Source: Bifidobacterium commune
Lineage (GTDB): Bacteria > Actinomycetota > Actinomycetes > Actinomycetales > Bifidobacteriaceae
Assembly (NCBI RefSeq): GCF_900094885.1
Contig: NZ_FMBL01000003.1
Coordinates: 184,346 to 248,345 of the forward strand
Direction of reading: 5' to 3'
Length of the DNA stretch: 64,000 bases
Below are positions 8,242 to 18,435 of this stretch, in pieces; the first letter of the stretch is position 1, and each line of letters starts with the position of its first letter. Made by a program: the position numbers and the translations under genes. The notes below the pieces were generated by a model. That model was not told the origin of the DNA and made no database searches. It saw only the letters and a list, made by a program, of their open reading frames with translations.

Positions 8242-8314
8242 GCCCCTCTGGCTCAATGGTTAGAGCAGCGTCCTTTTAAGTCGTGGGTTCTCGGTTCGAA
8301 TCCGAGGGGGGGCA
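8242..8314 (+). tRNA. tRNA-Lys (TTT)
   Basis: Full cloverleaf: acceptor GCCCCTC pairs with GGGGGGC, D arm GGCTCAATGGTTAGAGC, anticodon loop CTTTTAA with anticodon TTT, T arm CTCGG-TTCGAAT-CCGAG. CCA is not encoded. The anticodon stem has one T-T mismatch at the fourth pair, which does not change the call. Confidence 0.95.
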
Positions 8315-8319
8315 CAAGC

Positions 8320-8350: not shown

Positions 8351-8854
8351 TATTTTAGACGAGGGCTTCAGGCGTGGTTCTCTGCCTCTGATATCAGAGT
8401 TTTGCTCCAAGTCGTATAGAGGCGACGTCAGAGCAGGCTGATTGCGATTTCCCGATGGACGAATCAGAAAGCTGTTCGTATGTGGTGGCTAGCGATCAGC
8501 AGGACCAGCGCGGTGGCGAAGAACTGTGTGCTGAGGGCTACGATGGTAGTGATGGCATTGCTTGTTTTCGCTGGTGTGTCGGGACTTGTAGCGTCAGCAA
8601 CTTGATTTTTACCGTTTTCTCGGCGTGTTGCCGAATTCCTGTTTCCGTTTTCGTGGTATCTCTAAGGAGAACGATGCAGCTGTTTAATGTTCAATTGTTA
8701 TACCGCAGGAAATTGGCATGTTTTCTGATATACTCCATTTGAATGGACAGAATAAAGAATGCTGTTTAGTTTGGATTGAGTGCTGAAATCACTTGGTCCG
8801 TGAGAAGAAGCACGGTGCAGTAGGTTGCTGTGCCATGTATTGAGGGGGATTACC
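8351..8854. other. Intergenic region before the RCC1 gene with a lone signal-peptide relic
   Basis: No intact gene is seen. The middle holds a short reading frame that encodes only a signal peptide. The last 150 bases are AT-richer and presumably contain the promoter of the RCC1 gene. Confidence 0.5.
8513..8605 (+). pseudogene. Relic signal peptide of a lost secreted protein
   Basis: GTG at 8513 opens a 30-codon frame: VAKNCVLRATM, then the hydrophobic core VVMALLVFAGVSGLV, then ASAT and TGA. This is a textbook Sec signal peptide with an A-S-A cleavage site and nothing after it. AGCAGGA lies about ten bases upstream. It resembles in style, not in sequence, the leader of the RCC1 protein 250 bases downstream. 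The best reading is the stump of a decayed secreted gene; a functional micropeptide is possible but unsupported. Confidence 0.4.
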
Positions 8855-11800
8855 GTGCGCAATTCGCGTATTGTTAGTGCCATTGTACTTGCGTTGGTGT
8901 GTGTCTTTGTTGGTGGTGGGCTGAGTTTAGCAAGTGCAGAGCCCGCCGGTATGTTGAAGTCGGGTGGTTTGACCCGTGGAGTGTCCTCAAATGGCGGTTT
9001 TACTCTTGAGCCTGATACGGGTAAAGTGGGTACTGAAGTGAAGATTACGCCGCCCAAGAGCAATGGTGGCAGTACTAGCGGCAGTACTGGCCAGTTTACG
9101 CAGGTTGATGCTTTCGGTGATTTTGCTTTGGCTCTTGGTGCCGATCAGTTGATTTATTCTTGGGGCGACAATGAGAATGGTGAGCTGGGTATAGGTACCA
9201 GTGGTGGCAATCGGAATACGCCTCAGTTGGTTAAGACACCAATTGGAGTGCGGTTCAAGGAGATTGGTGCTGGTGAGCATCATGGAATAGCTTTGGATAC
9301 AAGTGGAAATATTTGGACATGGGGCAAGAATAATAAGGGTCAGTTGGGCCTCCACAATACCACACCTCGCAACGTACCTCAGATGGTTCCGGATGAAAAT
9401 GGGAAGCCTAACAGCAATAAATTCAAAAAAGTTAGTGCCGGTGGTGAGCATAGCGCTGCTATAGATATGTCAGGGCAAGTGTGGTCTTGGGGCAGCAATA
9501 ATCACGGTCAGATTGGCATAGGCACTATGAATGAAATGCAGTGGCAGATAACGAAGACGAAGCCCTTCGTGGACAATGTGGACAAGAAGGAATATAAAGC
9601 AATCGATATTGATTGCGGTGGAGACCACACATTGGCTAGAGATACCGATCAGTATATGTGGTCATGGGGCAGGAATACGGAATATCAGCTGGGCGGAGAA
9701 ACTGACAATTCAGATCAATGGGCCCCCGTCTCCTTCCGACGGCCGGGCTGGTCGCCTTTATCTCAAATCGCTGCAGGCGGCCAGCACTCAGAGGTTGTTA
9801 GTGTTGATGGCTCTGCTGCTGGTTTTGGTTCGAATGAATTTACTCAGGCAGGAAATGCTGCTCAGAATCATTGGGACCGAGCCTTTCGGTTCCCGAGTGC
9901 AAGAGGTTTTAGCGGGGTGACGCAATTACCGTTTAGGTCCAATAGAGTACTTGATGAAAACGGTCTTGAGTGGAGCCCCGCCCCCTATGGCAAGGCTAAA
10001 TATGTGACCGCGGGATACTATCACTCTCTTGGAATCGCGCAGGATAGTAATAACAGTAGTTCTACTTACCAAGTTTGGGGTTGGGGAAAAAATGAAAAGG
10101 GTGAAATTGGTAGTGACGCTCATACCAATTATGAGAGGACCGTGCAAGGATACCCAGCCATTTCTTCTTCAGCGACCGCAAGAGATTTTAAAACGTTGGC
10201 AGCAGGAAAAAAATTCACTGTTGGTTTAACAAACAGTGGGAAAGTGTACACTTGGGGTGCGAATGATAAGGGTCAGCTTGCAAATGGTTCAAATAATGGC
10301 GATAAGCAAACCAACCCCACGTCAATTGCGACTACCTCGACGCCGGAAACTCCTCTTGAAATTGTAGAAGTCAAATTTGATGGTGTTAATGCACCTAAGA
10401 AGAGTGTCGATGCTTCGTCTGGTGCGTGGTACGTTAATGCCCCTAAGCCCAACCGGGCAATCGGTGCGAATAATTTGACGGTTGATGTTCTTGTTACATA
10501 TAAAGGTACAAATGGCAACAACGAGACCACTACGTTAAAATACACGTATCTCGGAAATCCAGATACCCCTAATCCGCCAACGCCACCTAACCCTCCTTCG
10601 CCGCCGCCAGTCGCTACTTGTACTGTTTCCTTTAATTTGGGTGGTGCCCCGGGGGCCATTCCGAGCCAATCAGTTCCGTGCGGCAGTCTTGTTAAGTGGC
10701 CTAATAATGCTAACCCAAAGTGGGACAATCGCTGGTTTAATGGTTGGTTGGTGCAGGGTACGAATCCAGCAGAATTATGGGACTTCAACAAACCTGTAAC
10801 CAAAAACATGACTTTGGTGGCACAGTGGGGAGGGCCTTACAGTTTCGATATGACCCCTAATAAAGGTCCTGTTGAAGGAGGTTCCACTGTTACGGTAAAG
10901 AGAAACCCAGGTAACCGTGTCAGTTTTAAGTATGTAAGCGTGAGTGCCGGTCAGGCTCATACGCTGGCTGTTGGTTCTGATGGTTACGTGTATTCGTGGG
11001 GTAATAATGATAGCGGTCAGTTGGGCGATGGAACAACTGTTACACGTTCTGCAGCTGTTCGCGTGCAGACCCCTCTTGACGTTCGTTTCTTGCAAGTTGC
11101 TGCTGGCGGTGGACATTCGTTGGCCTTAGATTCCAACGGAAATGTGTGGGGCTGGGGTCAAAATAATCATGGTCAGGTTGGGAATCAGAGCACTTCGACT
11201 CGTACTGTTCCCGTACAGGTCGATAGGATGAAAGCTGGTTCTGTCAAGTTTAAAGAAATTTCCGCAGGTGCCCAGCATTCACTGGCTGTTGATGTAAACG
11301 GTGATGCTTGGTCATGGGGATACAATACTGACGGTATTCTCGGCTTGGGCAACAGTGGCACTGATGAATGGCATCCTGAGAGGGTTTCCGGAGGTGTAAA
11401 ATTCGCTCATCTGAGTGCAGGTTATGACCATTCAGCTGGTGTCGATACCAGCGGTGAAGTATGGTCTTGGGGCAACAATGATAAAGGTCAACTTGGTAAT
11501 CAAGGCCGGGGGACTGATCAGTGGCATCCAGTAAAAATCGTGCGAAAGGTGAATGATAAGCCGCGTGAGGATTCGACAGGCGTTATCTTCAAGAGTGTAA
11601 GTGCCGGTAATAGATTCACCATTGCGCTTGCTGATGATGGCTATGCTTGGGGATGGGGCTATAATAAGGCAGGTCAGATTGGTAACAATTGGTATAATGA
11701 TGAATGGCATCCGGTAAGAGTTTACCCGTCGCAGGATAACAACGGCCAAGAAGTCAAGTTTAAAGAAGTGAGCGCCGGTGGTTGCCATGTGGTGGGTCTT

Positions 11801-12265
11801 GACAAGGATGACTGGCCTTACACTTGGGGGTGTAATGCAAATGGACGCCTTGGTCTAGCATCAATACCGTCGACTGATCAATGGTGGCCTCGGTCATTGG
11901 GTATCGGTTATACCCATGGCATAAGTGCAGGCGATGTTCACTCGGCGGCTATTGTGTGGCAAACTCAGGAGATGAAGACTTGGGGTGATTCGTCTCCGCA
12001 GCTCGGACGTGGGGATCCTGTTCAGGGTGAACCATCTTCGACGACGAGCGTCATTCCACCGATTGTTGATCTAGTTTCGGTCAAGTTTGATGGTCAATCA
12101 GCTCAATCAATAAATATCAGCAAGAGAAGCGATGGTGAGGCGGTGTGGGAAGTGAAAACCCCTCCGGCCCCAGCAAATTCCACTGGTCGTGTTGATGTCA
12201 CGTTCCAATGGACTCTTGGAGAAAATGATGTGCTGAAGAACAAATACCTGTACTTTGTACAGTAA
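8855..12265 (+). CDS. Secreted protein with two seven-repeat RCC1 propellers
   Basis: A 1136-residue exported protein. The GTG at 8855 is chosen because GAGGGGG lies seven bases upstream and the signal peptide (VRNSRIVSAIVLALVC.. to SLASA) starts there. A short TIG-like strand segment (GGFTLEPDTGKVGTEVKI) is followed by seven RCC1 repeats ending in WG.N..GQLG-type turns (about residues 90-490). Next come a VKFDG domain, a Pro-rich linker, a Listeria-Bacteroides-type repeat with two Cys, and a second TIG-like segment. Then seven more RCC1 repeats (about 690-1055) and a second VKFDG domain lead to the end. No LPXTG motif or transmembrane tail is seen, so it is released or held non-covalently. 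RCC1 propellers bind proteins or glycans; the partner is unknown. Third-base composition is less G+C-biased than neighbours. Confidence 0.88.
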   Translation: MRNSRIVSAIVLALVCVFVGGGLSLASAEPAGMLKSGGLTRGVSSNGGFTLEPDTGKVGTEVKITPPKSNGGSTSGSTGQFTQVDAFGDFALALGADQLIYSWGDNENGELGIGTSGGNRNTPQLVKTPIGVRFKEIGAGEHHGIALDTSGNIWTWGKNNKGQLGLHNTTPRNVPQMVPDENGKPNSNKFKKVSAGGEHSAAIDMSGQVWSWGSNNHGQIGIGTMNEMQWQITKTKPFVDNVDKKEYKAIDIDCGGDHTLARDTDQYMWSWGRNTEYQLGGETDNSDQWAPVSFRRPGWSPLSQIAAGGQHSEVVSVDGSAAGFGSNEFTQAGNAAQNHWDRAFRFPSARGFSGVTQLPFRSNRVLDENGLEWSPAPYGKAKYVTAGYYHSLGIAQDSNNSSSTYQVWGWGKNEKGEIGSDAHTNYERTVQGYPAISSSATARDFKTLAAGKKFTVGLTNSGKVYTWGANDKGQLANGSNNGDKQTNPTSIATTSTPETPLEIVEVKFDGVNAPKKSVDASSGAWYVNAPKPNRAIGANNLTVDVLVTYKGTNGNNETTTLKYTYLGNPDTPNPPTPPNPPSPPPVATCTVSFNLGGAPGAIPSQSVPCGSLVKWPNNANPKWDNRWFNGWLVQGTNPAELWDFNKPVTKNMTLVAQWGGPYSFDMTPNKGPVEGGSTVTVKRNPGNRVSFKYVSVSAGQAHTLAVGSDGYVYSWGNNDSGQLGDGTTVTRSAAVRVQTPLDVRFLQVAAGGGHSLALDSNGNVWGWGQNNHGQVGNQSTSTRTVPVQVDRMKAGSVKFKEISAGAQHSLAVDVNGDAWSWGYNTDGILGLGNSGTDEWHPERVSGGVKFAHLSAGYDHSAGVDTSGEVWSWGNNDKGQLGNQGRGTDQWHPVKIVRKVNDKPREDSTGVIFKSVSAGNRFTIALADDGYAWGWGYNKAGQIGNNWYNDEWHPVRVYPSQDNNGQEVKFKEVSAGGCHVVGLDKDDWPYTWGCNANGRLGLASIPSTDQWWPRSLGIGYTHGISAGDVHSAAIVWQTQEMKTWGDSSPQLGRGDPVQGEPSSTTSVIPPIVDLVSVKFDGQSAQSINISKRSDGEAVWEVKTPPAPANSTGRVDVTFQWTLGENDVLKNKYLYFVQ

Positions 12266-12335
12266 GATATGTAGGTGGAGGGAATAGAGAATAGATCGTA
12301 CTGATAATTGAAACTTTGTTTTCTGAATTGCATGT

Positions 12336-12370
12336 CGTCTAAACCTCGTTTCAATGATGAGGTTTAGACG
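12336..12370 (+). terminator. Hairpin after the RCC1 gene
   Basis: A perfect 12-bp stem (12336-12347 with 12359-12370) and an 11-base loop, 70 bases past the stop codon. No U-tract follows. Confidence 0.5.
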
Positions 12371-12473
12371 ATACCTACGACTCCAAAGTATGGCTTAACG
12401 TTCAATAGTAATTCTGTGTTGGAGAGGCTTCGTGGTTTACAAAGCGTAATCCGATTGAGGCTTTGAAAGAACG

Positions 12474-12504
12474 AAGGGTACCGCTGCAACAGCGGTACCC
12501 TTTC
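12474..12504. terminator. Tight GC-rich hairpin
   Basis: A perfect 13-bp stem AAGGGTACCGCTG (12474-12486) with 12490-12502 and a three-base loop, followed by TTCCC. It resembles the tRNA-Lys terminator stem and may be the main transcription end for this interval. Confidence 0.55.
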
Positions 12505-12683
12505 CCGTATTGCTCTCAAACAAGCATGTACCTAGTGGTGCCGTGAGGCTGTGCTTATCAATATGAAAACATCGATTGTCGTCTGATTCACAGTTTCCAG
12601 AATACTGGTCTGGTCAGGCAATACAGCGACTTTCTGATTCCCTGAATAGCAACGGCTTGAAACAGATCGAGAGCTATCTTGCG

Positions 12684-12977
12684 TTCAGAGCTGCCCGAGA
12701 GATTCCGAGCAAACTTGCATGCTCGTTGTCTCGGGTTCACAATCCCCTGGGGAGTGGTAGCCGAATACATGTTGATTTCTGTTCGAGCAATAATAGATGC
12801 ATTGTGGGTTTCCGTCAGTATGTTGTTTCAAAAGCGAATTTATCGGCGAATCGGTTGGATGAGTCAGTTGAAACCGATGACATGTTTCGCGACACGGTAG
12901 CCCATGCGGATGATCCAGCGGCCCAGCGGACCAGGAAGGTTGATGGCGCGTGAGGGCAGCTGACGACGCACGTCACG
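12684..12977 (-). pseudogene. Degenerate duplicate of the glutaredoxin and glycosyltransferase 3' ends
   Basis: Bases 12686-12707 repeat the last codons of the glutaredoxin gene (ESLGQL and stop; compare 16951-16972). Bases from 12772 align with those from 17301, loosely at first. Bases 12845-12977 match 17379-17511 over 133 positions with one difference (G12929 against A17463). That last block is the 3' end of the glycosyltransferase gene, including its TGA. The roughly 330 bases between the two parts at the right-hand site are shortened to about 65 here. The helicase gene lies exactly between the two copies. Confidence 0.85.
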
Positions 12978-13049
12978 TGCCGTGTGCTCGACCTACTCAA
13001 AGCAGAATGCACGGCATGCGGCAGTTCGAATGGTCCAGGGCTATCGGCT

Positions 13050-16000
13050 CTAGGACGGATTGCGTATGGGCAGTGAGCGAATGAGATACTCGGAATATTT
13101 ACCCGACTCCCAGTCGCGGACGTTGCCAATAACATATAGACGCCGTTTGGCACGTGAAACCGCGACGTTAAGCATATTCGGGCTGGAATTAACCCAGTCG
13201 CGAGAACCACAGCCTGGCTTGCCAGGTGTGCTACCCATAACAAGGAACACAATGTCGGCTTCTCGGCCTTGAGAGGTGTGGACGGTTCCCGCCTGATTTG
13301 CGGCAAGTTCGGCTGCCCGGCCGTGGCTGTAATGGCCGGATTGCTTGAGTGCGGACCGGAAGATGTCCTGAACCTTGTTGGCGCCCACTTTGAATGGAGC
13401 TATGACCAGTATCTGTTCAGGTGCGATGCCACCTTCAATAAGATCTGTCAGTCTGGCGTACAGTTCATGTCCCTCTTTGAGCCGCCATTTGTTCTTGCCG
13501 ATCTCGTCTGGTCCTGCGGGAATGTCGTACCAGCAAGATGGAGGTATCGCGATTCCTTCTTTGGTGCCTGCCATATACAAGCACGGTGTGTGCTCGGCAC
13601 CCGCCCGAACCATGCGTCCGGAATAAGCCATCTCATTGCAAATCGAGAACATGGGCTCTTCGCACCTCCTGTGAACCACCAGAGGCATTCCTACCCATTG
13701 CTCGGCTTCCAGGCCGTATCGTGTCTGATGGTCCACCATTTCCTGTACATTGTGAGATTCGCGTCCCATCACAATATTGTGGGTGTCGGCCAGTAGTTCA
13801 CGCATCTGGGCGGGAAGTGTGTCAATCGGTTCAAGCTGCATGGGATCGCCTACCGCTACCGCATGATGAACTCGCTGTAACAGTCCTGCAGCAGATTGAG
13901 GTGTGGCCTGGCCCGCTTCGTCAATGATCGCCCATCCCAGGCTTTCTTTACCCAGCCCCCTGAACATTCCGGATACCGAAGCGAACGACGATGAGATCAC
14001 CGGAACGACCAGAAACAGCGATTGCCAAGCGGCCAGTTGTGCTTGCTGGTCGAAGTGTCTCGGCTGCTGCATCACCTTGCATGCAAGGGTCAGGTTCTCG
14101 CGGAATTGCTGGACAGCACCTATTACCAGTTGTTGGTGGAGTCGCAGAGCCGCCATAAACAACTCGGTTCTGGCGGTATTCCACTCTTGGTCTATCCAGT
14201 CAAGACGCTCGTCGCTCAGCGTGGATATATGTTTGGGACGATTCTGATAGTCCTCCAGCTTAGCGTTGACTTCATTCAGCTGTGCTGACAGATTGCTTTC
14301 TCTGGTCGACAGCATTGATACTTCCGATGACTCAGTGTTTATCGTCGCGTTTAACCGAGCCAAAGAATAGTATTCGCTGTTGGCTGTATCGCACAAATTC
14401 TGCTTTTTTAATCGAGCTTGCTCCTTGGCTATATAGGCGCTTTTCTCGTCTTCCTTACGTTTTTTAAAGTGAATAAGCGATTCGAAAAAGTGCGTTGCCC
14501 AATATTGCTGATGCGCGTTATAGAAGATTTCAGCCTCTTGCCATGCATTGATGGCCTCGTCGCCTTTTCGACAACTTTCGTTGAGCTGAAGTTGTAAATC
14601 TTGGGCTTGCTCGCGGTTAGTGTCGAGATCTCGATTCTTTTTTTGCAGGCATATTTGAACTTCTCCCAGATCGTTTTTAAGTCGCTCTTGTGCGCGTAGT
14701 AAATCGGAAGGATCATGGTTCGCTATAAAAGCCGCTTCTCTGCGTTCGCAAAGTTCTGCTTCTTTTTGCAGCGCGGATTTGAACGCTTTTCGGGCTTCCC
14801 TCCAATTGTGGTTTGCTGATCTGTACTCAGCATTCGACAAATTCAAACGTTCTCTGATGAAACGGGATTCGAACGGGCCGATGAACTTGCTCTTGTTGGT
14901 CGCGTTGCCTAGGGTTGCGGCCAGGAGAGCCCATGCCGAAGGTGAATCGTCGTCCGTTTTGTTCGCCGTTGCTTCCTTTTTGCCATCAGATTTCAGGAGT
15001 TCTTCGGCGAGTTGGCGAAATGCATAATCCTTGGATTCCCTGCCGTATTCGTTCTCGATCCATGATTGCCAATCGGTCGCTAACGATTCGGTGCGGGGCA
15101 GGTCCTGGCTGATGTTTTCGACGGCTTTGTTGTTGCTGGACGCGACGACGATTTCGTATCCGATTACCGCTGGTTGCAACGTCCAGTAATTCAGGGGTCC
15201 GTTAGTAACATGGGTCTTGAATATATCCTCAGGTCGCTCGAAACGGGCCAGTTGGCTGGCGCGTGCCACAATGATTTCGGAGATGACATCCTTGAGTAAA
15301 GTTGTTTTGCCTGTTCCGGGAGGACCGTTGACACCCAATAGGTAATCGCCTTGTCCCGAATTTGCGGTCGCAGTTATCTGGTTGATGGCCAATTGTTGGG
15401 CAGTCGATTGGAACTGATTTGATTTGCTGGGCCAGCGGCCGTCGGGTATACGGTTAGGTTGCGTTAGCTTGTCAAGTAAGGCGCCGTCGGGATCTTCCGT
15501 CAGATCAAAGCGCTCGGGGTGGGTTTGAGAAAGGTATCGCTTCAGTGGCTCCGAGAACGTTTCTGAAGTGTGACTGCCCGAAGCGATTTCTTGGCATTTG
15601 ATATTATATAGTGCTTCTAGGTCACTGATATAGAACGAATCCATAAGAGGTGATTCGTTGGCATCGCCGCCCTTGACCAATCGACAGCTAACGGAATCTC
15701 TATCGATAAGGTTGCCGTCGGCTTGCTCGTAGACGGGGGACTGGCGTATCGTTTTGTCGTCCAATCCCAATTCGTTGGCAGCGGCATCGATAATGTAGTT
15801 CAGCGTGTTCCTGCTCACTCGTCTGGGTGAGCCATCGGGCGCCACGGCGCCAACGAGCTCGCTAAACATGATGCGAATCCGACGTTCGTTGTCGTCAAGT
15901 TGTTTGATGTCGGGCCATCCAGTCGGGCATGTCGGCCAGCAGTTGTGCGCGAATAGGCAGGAAACCGCCTTTGCATACTGGGAAATCGCCAAAGAAGAGT

Positions 16001-16892
16001 CCGGTCCCAAAGTGCCGTCATCGCGTACCTCAAAGCACATCATCGATGCCGTTGTTTTCTTCAGTGTGTAACGTTTCGCATCATCTCGCGTCGACGAACT
16101 CGGCAGCGTTTCTTCTTCTCTTACCTTTTCTGCAGGGGTGAATTCGCGTATCAATGTGGACGCGTTATGAAGAGCGTTGAACACTACTTGCTGGGACAGG
16201 CCCACCTGGATACAGAAGTATTCGTGATGCAGCCATGCCGATGTTTTTCGGTTTTTAGCGCTTGCATCCTTGGGTGGATTGGCCTTCATGTAGTACGGCT
16301 TCTCGCGGTACTTGTGAGGATAATTCTTGAGATAGATAGCCTGCACGCGTCCCGATCGATTTGTGGCGTGCGCCAAGTTTTCCATTGTGTCTACTAGAAG
16401 GCCGATCAAGGCATCTGAAACGAATGAGCCGGTAGGTAAAGTTTCCGAGCCGTATGTCAGTTCCAGCCACTCCTGATGGGCTTGTTGAATGATCGTCTGG
16501 ATGGGTGAATTGTTTTCGTAAGGCCAGGCGTTCTGCTTTTTCAGCCAGGTTTCCGTTGACTCAATGAAGGAAAGCGGTTGTTGCAGCCGGGCCTGCATGT
16601 TGGTTTGAATGTGATAACCCCCACCGAATTTCACCTGGCTATATTGTTCCTCGAACGAGGATCTTGTGCGCTGTGTCAAGCCGATGAACATGTCCGCGCG
16701 TAGGTCTTCCCATGGGAGGTTCTGGTATTGGGTGTTCTCGCTGTGTCCAACAGACTGCCGGAGGTTGATCTTCTGGGGATTTTTCCAAGACTGCGGAGAG
16801 AACAGCTCGACTGCGCACCAGTAGCCGAGAACGTCGAGTGAATACTGCGTTGCGGTCGTCATAACTTCCAGAATGCTGACCGGGGCAGACAT
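13050..16892 (-). CDS. Large UPF1-like superfamily 1 helicase with unknown N-terminal region
   Basis: A 1280-residue protein read from the ATG at 16892. About 500 N-terminal residues match nothing I recognise. The helicase core begins with Walker A GPPGTGKTT near residue 522. A long charged coiled coil (about 700-900, rich in E, K, Q, R) is inserted inside the core. Then come motif II DEAGQA near 988, GDPMQLEP near 1014, SQGREADIV, and motif VI VAVSRAKRRLYVIGN near 1247. This order is that of the AAA_11/AAA_12 (DNA2/NAM7/UPF1) group. Such solitary large helicases in bacteria are often accessory and some belong to phage defence. It is bracketed by duplicated flanks and has a more even base composition than neighbours, pointing to acquisition. 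Activity on DNA or RNA is not decided by sequence. Confidence 0.85.
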   Translation of the reverse strand: MSAPVSILEVMTTATQYSLDVLGYWCAVELFSPQSWKNPQKINLRQSVGHSENTQYQNLPWEDLRADMFIGLTQRTRSSFEEQYSQVKFGGGYHIQTNMQARLQQPLSFIESTETWLKKQNAWPYENNSPIQTIIQQAHQEWLELTYGSETLPTGSFVSDALIGLLVDTMENLAHATNRSGRVQAIYLKNYPHKYREKPYYMKANPPKDASAKNRKTSAWLHHEYFCIQVGLSQQVVFNALHNASTLIREFTPAEKVREEETLPSSSTRDDAKRYTLKKTTASMMCFEVRDDGTLGPDSSLAISQYAKAVSCLFAHNCWPTCPTGWPDIKQLDDNERRIRIMFSELVGAVAPDGSPRRVSRNTLNYIIDAAANELGLDDKTIRQSPVYEQADGNLIDRDSVSCRLVKGGDANESPLMDSFYISDLEALYNIKCQEIASGSHTSETFSEPLKRYLSQTHPERFDLTEDPDGALLDKLTQPNRIPDGRWPSKSNQFQSTAQQLAINQITATANSGQGDYLLGVNGPPGTGKTTLLKDVISEIIVARASQLARFERPEDIFKTHVTNGPLNYWTLQPAVIGYEIVVASSNNKAVENISQDLPRTESLATDWQSWIENEYGRESKDYAFRQLAEELLKSDGKKEATANKTDDDSPSAWALLAATLGNATNKSKFIGPFESRFIRERLNLSNAEYRSANHNWREARKAFKSALQKEAELCERREAAFIANHDPSDLLRAQERLKNDLGEVQICLQKKNRDLDTNREQAQDLQLQLNESCRKGDEAINAWQEAEIFYNAHQQYWATHFFESLIHFKKRKEDEKSAYIAKEQARLKKQNLCDTANSEYYSLARLNATINTESSEVSMLSTRESNLSAQLNEVNAKLEDYQNRPKHISTLSDERLDWIDQEWNTARTELFMAALRLHQQLVIGAVQQFRENLTLACKVMQQPRHFDQQAQLAAWQSLFLVVPVISSSFASVSGMFRGLGKESLGWAIIDEAGQATPQSAAGLLQRVHHAVAVGDPMQLEPIDTLPAQMRELLADTHNIVMGRESHNVQEMVDHQTRYGLEAEQWVGMPLVVHRRCEEPMFSICNEMAYSGRMVRAGAEHTPCLYMAGTKEGIAIPPSCWYDIPAGPDEIGKNKWRLKEGHELYARLTDLIEGGIAPEQILVIAPFKVGANKVQDIFRSALKQSGHYSHGRAAELAANQAGTVHTSQGREADIVFLVMGSTPGKPGCGSRDWVNSSPNMLNVAVSRAKRRLYVIGNVRDWESGKYSEYLIRSLPIRNPS

Positions 16893-16950
16893 TGCTAACT
16901 ACGCTCCCAGTTAAACCGCAGTGGATAAATCGGAGGCGAAAGCGACGTGC

Positions 16951-17205
16951 TCAGAGCTGCCCGAGAGATTCCAGTTTGGTCTTGAGATCTGTAGCGCTGG
17001 GCTCGACCTGGAAGCTGCCATCGGAGAAGAGCACGACCGGGATGTGTTTCTGTCCGCTGATTTCGATGGCTTTGGCTTCGGCACCGTCTTCATGCTCGAT
17101 GTCATGCCAGTTGTACCCCAGGCCGAAACGGTCGAGTGCGGCCTTTGCGCGCTTGCAATCGCCGCACCAATCGGCTCCGTAAACGTCGATGTTTGTATTT
17201 GCCAT
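16951..17205 (-). CDS. Glutaredoxin-like / mycoredoxin-like protein
   Basis: An 84-residue thioredoxin-fold redox protein of the cytoplasm. The active site is WCGDCKRAK at residues 12-20, a CxxC pair, with the cis-Pro loop at HIPVV and the C-terminal GSF motif typical of small glutaredoxins, NrdH and mycoredoxins. The ATG at 17205 follows AAAGGATTAATC; the longer frame from 17220 would skip this site. It lies 58 bases upstream of the helicase on the same strand, but that neighbour seems to be a newcomer. Electron donor (mycothiol is absent from bifidobacteria as far as known) is uncertain. Confidence 0.85.
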   Translation of the reverse strand: MANTNIDVYGADWCGDCKRAKAALDRFGLGYNWHDIEHEDGAEAKAIEISGQKHIPVVLFSDGSFQVEPSATDLKTKLESLGQL

Positions 17206-17397
17206 GATTAATCCTTTCAATTGACCTGTCCGAGCGTCGCCTGAAGAACATGCCTGCTTACGGCTTCAGAGCCGCAACCCCTCCTGCTGGCGGGCTAACA
17301 GGTGTTGATTCCTGTTCGCACAATGATAGATGTTTTGTGTCGGTCGGTTAGCATTTTGTTCCAAAGCGCAAACCTTTTGGCGAATCGGTTGGATGAG

Positions 17398-18435
17398 TCA
17401 GTTGAAACCGATGACATGTTTCGCGACACGGTAGCCCATGCGGATGATCCAGCGGCCCAGCGAACCAGGAAGGTTGATGGCGCGTGAGGGCAGCTGACGA
17501 CGCACGTCACGCGAGATGCTTGGCGACGTGGAGCGCAGGTTGTCCCAAAGTTCCTTCTTGATCTGATAGTTCGCCGGTTTCCGCGAGAGAATGAGAAAAA
17601 CGCTGGTCACCACGCTTTCGATAGAAAGAAAGTGGATCATATAGCGGTACAGTCCGTCAGGCACTGTGCCGCGCTCGGGGGTGGCGGCAACCATCGCGCG
17701 GTTGACGCGTACCAGTTGGTCAACCCGTCGGATCATCACGTTCGTCTGCACGCTCTGCCCGTCACGGCCGATGAAGTAGTGATAGAACGGAGTGTCGACA
17801 TACATCAGTGATCTGACCCACGGGAACGGCTGATAGGCGTAGATGAAATCCACGTAGAACGTGTGTTCGGGGAGTTCCGTCCGGGCCTGCCGCAAGACGT
17901 CCGTGCGGAAGGTGAGCGCATGCATGATCATGTATTGCGCGATCCCGAAATGTTTGAGGCCGTCCCAACTCAGGCGCTGGTCGGAGGTCATCACGTTGTG
18001 GAATTTGACGACATGCTTGTGCTTCTTGCCAACCTTGTCGTAGACGTAGTCGGTGACGAACAGGTCTATCGGCTCACTTGCCGTGCGCTGGCTGCGCATC
18101 GCATCAATCACCCGCGCCAGAGAGTCCGCGCCCACCCAGTCGTCGGCGTCGACGACTTTCAGATACATGCCCTGCGCGTTGGCGATGCCGGTATTGACCG
18201 CGCCGCCGTGACCTTTGTTGGTCTGATGAATGACGCGAACGATGTTCGGTTGCACCTGTGCAAGTCGGTCCGCAAGTTCAGAAGTGTCGTCAGACGAGCC
18301 GTCGTCTACGATCAGCACTTCGATGTCGTCGGGCTCGCGGATGGCGGTCAGCGACGATACACAACGTTCAAGGTAGGTGTCCATATTGAATGCAGGCACC
18401 ACAAAAGTGATCGTTTTCGAGCTAGTTTCCGGCAT
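17398..18435 (-). CDS. Family 2 glycosyltransferase
   Basis: A 345-residue GT-A fold enzyme, probably working on cell-surface polysaccharide at the cytoplasmic membrane face. The N terminus shows the nucleotide-sugar motifs ITFVVPAFNMDTYLERC, VLIVDDGSSDDT near 40-51 and KVVDADDW near 93-100 for metal binding, all as expected for GT2. The C-terminal 130 residues are basic and contain an amphipathic region but no clear transmembrane helix. The end of this gene is the part duplicated at 12845-12977. Donor and acceptor are unknown. The TetR gene follows upstream at 216 bases, same strand. Confidence 0.85.
   Translation of the reverse strand: MPETSSKTITFVVPAFNMDTYLERCVSSLTAIREPDDIEVLIVDDGSSDDTSELADRLAQVQPNIVRVIHQTNKGHGGAVNTGIANAQGMYLKVVDADDWVGADSLARVIDAMRSQRTASEPIDLFVTDYVYDKVGKKHKHVVKFHNVMTSDQRLSWDGLKHFGIAQYMIMHALTFRTDVLRQARTELPEHTFYVDFIYAYQPFPWVRSLMYVDTPFYHYFIGRDGQSVQTNVMIRRVDQLVRVNRAMVAATPERGTVPDGLYRYMIHFLSIESVVTSVFLILSRKPANYQIKKELWDNLRSTSPSISRDVRRQLPSRAINLPGSLGRWIIRMGYRVAKHVIGFN

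What the first reader, a model, noticed from the sequence alone, without database searches (positions are those of the whole stretch)
12684..17511. Helicase gene is bracketed by a direct duplication of two neighbouring gene ends
Left copy 12686-12977 carries the last codons of the glutaredoxin gene and the 3' end of the glycosyltransferase gene, in the same order and orientation as at 16951-17511 but with about 260 bases missing between them. The 1280-residue helicase lies between the copies. The simplest history is arrival of the helicase by recombination or insertion at the glutaredoxin 3' end, with duplication of the target flank. This makes the locus a likely swap site between strains, where defence genes often sit.
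Basis: partly seen in the sequence, partly recalled or inferred. Interest (0 to 1): 0.72.

Follow-up and report, generated by a model that had tools for sequence, protein, structure and literature searches.

The report
Recombination scar in a defence-gene hotspot
A bacterium, thought to be a bifidobacterium, carries a large helicase that is probably an anti-virus gene at a chromosomal spot where its relatives keep exchanging defence genes, and the repeated gene ends beside it look like the decayed scar of such an exchange rather than a special signal.

Summary
The duplication is real. 12834-12977 matches 17368-17511 (96%; one difference in the inner 133 bases), and 12685-12706 equals 16951-16972, the glutaredoxin end. 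The spacer between them is homologous but ~23% diverged, and the glutaredoxin body is missing on the left. A single clean target duplication does not explain this mosaic.

The true boundary is wider. In relatives the glycosyltransferase lies near tRNA-Lys(ttt), as close as ~90 bp. Here 9.1 kb separate them: an RCC1-repeat gene, the scar, the helicase and the native glutaredoxin. Ten helicase orthologues in a sister genus also lie 0.5-16 kb 3' of tRNA-Lys(ttt), several beside known defence genes. Four genomes keep 3' copies of that tRNA downstream; in two of these integrase sequence lies in between. Congener G154 has the helicase at this site without the duplication.

The helicase has a Mokosh type II-like core but no PLD nuclease. 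In the sister genus its central ~750 codons occur as two alleles exchanged between near-identical ends.

The hotspot is well supported, though without a random-locus control. Defence function is likely but untested. The scar's mechanism is inferred.

The parts
8242..8315 (+). tRNA-Lys(ttt), one edge of the variable interval
   Evidence: ARAGORN and Rfam; lies near the glycosyltransferase in relatives
8825..12265 (+). RCC1-repeat protein, 1146 aa, cargo gene
   Evidence: Pfam RCC1/RLD; no orthologue-like match in 112 genus genomes, only repeat matches in 6 others at E <= 1e-20
12685..12706 (-). left scar: last 22 nt of a second glutaredoxin gene
   Evidence: exact match to 16951-16972
12770..12977 (-). 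left scar: diverged spacer (12770-12844) and glycosyltransferase 3' end fragment (12845-12977, one mismatch)
13050..16892 (-). SF1-type helicase, 1280 aa, Mokosh type II-like core, no PLD domain
16951..17220 (-). intact glutaredoxin (mycoredoxin-like), 89 aa, native to the locus
   Evidence: NCBIfam TIGR02200 above cut-off; synteny
17303..17511 (-). right copy: spacer and glycosyltransferase 3' end
17398..18435 (-). glycosyltransferase family 2, 345 aa, other edge of the variable interval
   Evidence: Pfam PF00535; conserved neighbour in relatives

Best explanation
Shown: the stretch between tRNA-Lys(ttt) (8242-8315) and the native glutaredoxin/glycosyltransferase pair is a variable cargo site; in related species it is nearly empty or carries other genes, and in a sister genus the same helicase family sits 3' of the same tRNA among anti-phage genes. 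The left 'copy' is a partial second version of the glycosyltransferase-glutaredoxin junction and is mosaic. Inferred: a recombination with one homologous and one illegitimate end joined two versions of the locus and left a second glycosyltransferase end, spacer and glutaredoxin beside the helicase; the spare glutaredoxin body was then lost, perhaps between the similar 12-mers at its start and end; and the glycosyltransferase ends were made alike by gene conversion. Inferred: the helicase is a solitary defence gene, an ATP-driven sensor or remodeller of phage nucleic acid, that is kept, broken or replaced as phages change.
For: Near-empty site in G117 (~90 bp between tRNA-Lys and glycosyltransferase) and other content in other species. 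Helicase in none of the 11 closest relatives, in G154 at the same place without scar, and 0.5-16.3 kb 3' of tRNA-Lys(ttt) in 10 of 10 g15 orthologues. PADLOC matches in 10 of 20 hand-picked ORFs of those islands. tRNA 3' copies downstream in G155, G078, G079, G080, with integrase matches in between in G155 and G078. Intragenic allele exchange in the helicase. Mosaic scar. MkoC match E 1.6e-72.
Against: No integrase or tRNA copy was found in the window. The RCC1 gene has no PADLOC match, so the window's own block holds no second defence gene. The helicase of G154 is about as diverged as its glycosyltransferase and FtsY (60-70% vs 71-72%), so it may be inherited rather than newly arrived. The islands were found through the helicase and no random-locus control was made. 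G155 has it 25 kb away, the distant G090 relative is by a tRNA-Ser, and in G181 no tRNA-Lys was found on the 17 kb read. In G154 the helicase is on the tRNA's strand, in the window and g15 on the opposite one. Gene conversion is assumed, not shown. No defence test exists.
Confidence: 0.6

Rival explanations
1. Tandem duplication of a unit (glycosyltransferase end, glutaredoxin, helicase) followed by deletion of most of the second unit, leaving the scar.
For: Same order and strand in both copies, spacing 4534; needs no donor.
Against: The spacers differ by 23% while the glycosyltransferase ends differ by under 1%, so it too needs later gene conversion; nothing of a second helicase is seen at 12266-12836.
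Confidence: 0.2
2. Insertion of the helicase at the glutaredoxin 3' end with a target-site or attachment-site duplication (the 22-mer).
For: The 22-mer is exact and starts at the glutaredoxin stop codon.
Against: Does not account for the glycosyltransferase end and spacer in the left copy; no recombinase was recognised in the block; G154 has the helicase without it.
Confidence: 0.12
3. Old fixed arrangement inherited with the helicase.
For: The helicase occupies the same neighbourhood in G154.
Against: No scar in G154; no helicase in 11 closer relatives.
Confidence: 0.05
4. Assembly artefact.
For: Repeats within 5 kb can be misjoined.
Against: The copies differ at many places and the region lies inside a 318-kb contig of a 4-contig assembly.
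Confidence: 0.02

Closest known systems
Mokosh type II anti-phage system (MkoC)
   Same: Helicase core: PADLOC MkoC, E 1.6e-72, residues 484-1261; the relatives tested match it too.
   Different: No PLD domain in this protein or in 8 relatives; PMC10952713 lists a PLD-like domain for Mokosh I and II (passage). Residues 1-480 are not covered by the match.
UPF1/IGHMBP2-like SF1 helicases
   Same: AAA_11/AAA_12 domains; weak profile match to human UPF1 structures, E 2.4e-4 over columns 1127-1254.
   Different: Far below the NCBIfam cut-off for TIGR00376 (37 vs 348.9 bits); much larger, with a long poorly conserved stretch between core parts.
tRNA-anchored defence islands and integrative elements
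   Same: Variable cargo 3' of a tRNA gene; tRNA 3' copies and integrases in some relatives. PMC3218068 reports actinobacterial elements in tRNA-Lys genes of Frankia (passage).
   Different: The window itself has lost, or never had, the integrase and the second tRNA copy.

Membership tests
Mokosh type II | MkoC-like SF1 helicase core | tested here: met
   PADLOC MkoC E 1.6e-72, residues 484-1261
Mokosh type II | PLD-type nuclease domain | tested here: not met
   no PLD match in Pfam; the MkoC match stops at profile position 947 of 1136
Mokosh type II | anti-phage activity | not testable with these tools
   needs an experiment
IGHMBP2/UPF1 family (TIGR00376) | score above the family cut-off | tested here: not met
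   37 bits against 348.9
Integrative element in tRNA-Lys(ttt) | integrase next to the tRNA | tested here: not met
   none recognised in the window block (ORFs read, only five of them scanned with Pfam); present in G155 and as a remnant in G078
Integrative element in tRNA-Lys(ttt) | copy of the tRNA 3' end at the far side | tested here: not met
   none in the window or by exact pattern in the genome; present in G155, G078, G079, G080
Defence island | several defence genes together | tested here: inconclusive
   not in the window block (the RCC1 gene has no match); met in several g15 loci at the same tRNA, without a random-locus control
Transposition or simple target-site duplication | uniform exact flanking repeats | tested here: not met
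   the repeat is composite and mosaic

The most novel reading that the evidence does not exclude
A solitary, PLD-less Mokosh-like helicase is a defence gene whose central ~750 residues act as an exchangeable specificity cassette. Species trade the centre by homologous recombination through the conserved gene ends, at a tRNA-Lys hotspot shared by two genera. The scar in the window is a by-product of the same kind of exchange acting through the neighbouring glycosyltransferase gene.
Probability: 0.3. Interest if true: 0.7.

Novelty: new member of a known kind. Interest (0 to 1): 0.45.

Why it matters
It points to a defence-gene hotspot at tRNA-Lys(ttt) in two genera of one family, and to a recurrent large helicase there that lacks the nuclease of its closest described relative. 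The two natural alleles of the helicase centre offer a ready test of which part of such a helicase decides what it recognises. It also shows that a flanking duplication alone should not be read as the signature of an insertion.

Tried and rejected
The fold of residues 1-480 from one sequence had mean pLDDT 35.9; unusable, and no fold search was run. A scan of viral contigs with the helicase alignment confirmed no relative (41 pattern stretches, 0 confirmed). The genome-contig scan gave one distant hit, 38% over residues 955-1022. Plasmids (709 records) and phages (4 records) match mainly the helicase core; no record covers 80% of the protein, and the rows listed show 22-68% coverage at 26-35% identity, so no close mobile carrier was found. 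12266-12836 occurs in the window genome only, of 112 genus genomes, so no donor of the left spacer is known. A 22-bp attachment site at the glutaredoxin end was considered and put low. Literature: searches (0 papers) listed no paper whose title or abstract describes a tRNA-Lys defence hotspot in bifidobacteria; one search searched Mokosh. Of papers I saw listings, and passages of PMC10952713, PMC11291487, PMC3218068 and PMC4449606; none was read whole.
Full report
OBSERVATION. The repeat is present as described. The glycosyltransferase (GT) end 17368-17511 recurs at 12834-12977 (96%), and the last 22 nt of the glutaredoxin gene (GRX), 16951-16972, recur exactly at 12685-12706. The left copy is 268 bases shorter, essentially by the GRX body. 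The copies are mosaic: one mismatch in 12845-12977, then 77% identity over the spacer (90 of 117 aligned bases). The near part of the spacer is far above shuffles (0 of 2000); the far part is not (314 of 2000). At the inner mismatch 11 of the 12 relatives aligned carry the base of the right copy and G110 that of the left (read by eye), so the left copy probably has the derived base. By BLAST no spacer of these 12 relatives aligns with either copy beyond the first ~8 nt after the GT stop.

REAL BOUNDARIES. A tRNA-Lys(ttt) lies at 8242-8315. In relatives it lies near GT. Of the 11 relatives with the most similar GT gene (79-82% DNA identity: G176, G085, G175, G174, G108, G101, G137, G148, G117, G150, G147), 8 have tRNA-Lys and GT in the stretch fetched, with intervals of ~90 bp (G117), 0.6 (G176), 1.6 (G147, with GRX), 2.8 (G174), 3.3 (G148), 3.5 (G137), 3.9 (G175) and 8.6 kb (G108). 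In G150, G085 and G101 the tRNA was not in the stretch. Contents differ, though a similar ~600-aa ORF recurs in G148, G137 and G101 (G174-G176 were not listed there). The window has 9.1 kb. GT, GRX and tRNA-Lys occur in this order in G147, G151, G173, G109, G177 and G119, so GRX is native; inserts lie between GRX and the tRNA, between GT and GRX, or both. The RCC1-repeat gene 8825-12265 has only repeat matches in 6 other genus genomes of 112 at E <= 1e-20. 12266-12836 occurs in no other of 112. The names TetR, FtsY, ammonium transporter, alcohol dehydrogenase and membrane protein used here for neighbours are read from the sequence by eye, not from a family search.

HELICASE DISTRIBUTION. In the genus 8 of 112 genomes match at E <= 0.001. 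The window, G154 (70% over residues 291-1277, 61% over 1-297, interrupted) and G155 (50%) match over nearly the whole length. G181 has a diverged 1279-codon frame (37-54% over pieces from residue 211 on) and G179 a shorter one; G125, G053 and G120 match weakly. In sister genus g15, 12 of 27 genomes match: ten have the 1280-aa type, G090 a distant relative (36% over 413-1271), G078 remnants. In the class sample 42 of 394 match; in the rows listed none but the window reaches residues before 336 in one piece. Of the 13 long orthologues (ten g15, window, G154, G155), those of G154, G065, G080 and G039 are interrupted; sequencing error is possible.

THE SITE IS SHARED. In G154 the order is FtsY, TetR, GT, tRNA-Lys, helicase, membrane gene, alcohol dehydrogenase, and no second GT end was found. 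There the helicase is on the tRNA's strand; in the window it is on the other. In g15, 10 of 10 orthologues lie 3' of tRNA-Lys(ttt), on the opposite strand, 0.5 to 16.3 kb away (distances worked out by hand). These ten are related, not independent. Exceptions: in G155 the helicase is 25 kb 3' of the tRNA; no tRNA-Lys was found in the 17 kb read of G181 nor in the 18 kb of G179; G090's relative is next to a tRNA-Ser. Between tRNA-Lys and helicase lie AbiH and YafQ/RelB (G076), a SIR2-HerA pair (G062), a PifA/KAP NTPase and an AIPR protein (G065), a NucC-like nuclease (G049) and a DUF6932/PDC-M63A protein (G096); just beyond the helicase remnant of G078 lie type I restriction-modification and Mrr genes. 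In all, 10 of 20 ORFs that I picked by hand had a PADLOC match. The loci were chosen by the helicase and no random-locus control was made. Copies of the 3' part of tRNA-Lys lie 3-9 kb downstream on the tRNA's strand in G155, G078, G079 and G080 (44 loci plus window scanned; a further copy in G150's stretch, where no full tRNA-Lys was found). Between tRNA and copy G155 has an integrase (phrog_1, E 4e-30) and a remnant (E 5e-5), and G078 a remnant (E 4e-5) (Pfam gave no match for the last). No such copy was found in the window, nor by exact pattern in its genome.

EXCHANGE INSIDE THE HELICASE GENE. In g15 the gene falls into class A (G096, G076, G049, G039, G074, G065, G080) and class B (G062, G068); G102 is distant from both (48-61%). 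Across classes the first 300 columns are 92-99% alike, the last ~1140 columns 91-93%, the centre (columns 331-2600, ~750 codons) only 63-65%; within a class the centre is 91-96%. G062 and G068 share the centre at 96%, although the gene next to the helicase (a P-type ATPase by its DKTGTLT motif, recalled) is 88.9% alike between them and GT 92.0%. The centre has therefore probably moved between species by homologous recombination through conserved ends. dN/dS over the whole gene is 0.13-0.15 for three class A pairs and 0.26-0.29 for three cross-class pairs (centre dS 1.4-1.7, near saturation); it is 0.18 for residues 292-1280 of window vs G154. In the first 110 codons it is 0.4-0.9 with dS only 0.02-0.05, which says little about selection and hints at recent exchange of that end.

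WHAT THE HELICASE IS. Pfam AAA_11/AAA_12; PADLOC MkoC E 1.6e-72; far below the IGHMBP2 cut-off; weak match to UPF1 structures. The GPPGTGKTT, DEAGQ and NVAVSRA segments are invariant in seven sequences; their reading as helicase motifs is recalled. No PLD domain was found in it or in 8 relatives; PMC10952713 lists one for Mokosh I and II (passage). PMC11291487 says Mokosh degrades viral transcripts (passage). It may work like a Mokosh helicase, but by this test it is not a Mokosh type II member. No partner gene travels with it in the loci compared: its neighbours differ.

MECHANISM OF THE SCAR (inferred). One homologous and one illegitimate junction joining two versions of the locus would leave a second GT end, spacer and GRX next to the helicase. 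The non-homologous junction is at 12977/12978, beside a hairpin after the helicase. The GRX body may have been lost between CTCGGACAGGTC near its start and CTCGGGCAGCTC at its end. Near-identical GT ends next to a 23% diverged spacer need gene conversion or an earlier recombination at that point; without other strains I cannot say which, nor which copy is the resident one.

VERDICT. The duplication is real but is a decayed scar, so far seen in this genome only. The more informative facts are the shared tRNA-Lys hotspot and its recurrent helicase with an exchangeable centre.

Noticed in passing
L097-L105 (g15 helicase genes): Two allele classes with a 64% identical centre between ends over 90% alike; the class B centre is shared by G062 and G068 at 96% although flanking genes are less alike.
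   Followed up: yes
window 8242-8315 and L096:3468-3541: The T-stem of tRNA-Lys is CTCGG/CCGAG in the window and in G102; of 27 tRNA-Lys genes read, 24 have GTGGG, 2 GTCGG (G175, G155) and 1 CTCGG (G102). This may be a footprint of 3' end replacement by integrating elements.
   Followed up: partly
L138:9460-9496, L107:11882-11915, L072:5497-5533, L105:1552-1584, L094:18045-18089: Partial tRNA-Lys 3' copies, likely attachment-site scars; integrase next to the one in G155.
   Followed up: partly
L100, L104, L105, L135: Helicase genes interrupted in G039, G065, G080 and G154; frequent inactivation or sequencing error.
   Followed up: partly
loci L061-L092: tRNA-Lys lies on either strand relative to the glycosyltransferase in different species of the genus, which suggests repeated local inversion.
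   Followed up: no
L094 (G150): Glutaredoxin lies far from the glycosyltransferase here, near a tRNA-Lys 3' copy and ORFs with weak similarity to the middle of the RCC1 protein (residues 588-668).
   Followed up: no
L090 (G175): TetR-like and FtsY-like matches are each split into two frames; frameshifts or assembly errors.
   Followed up: no
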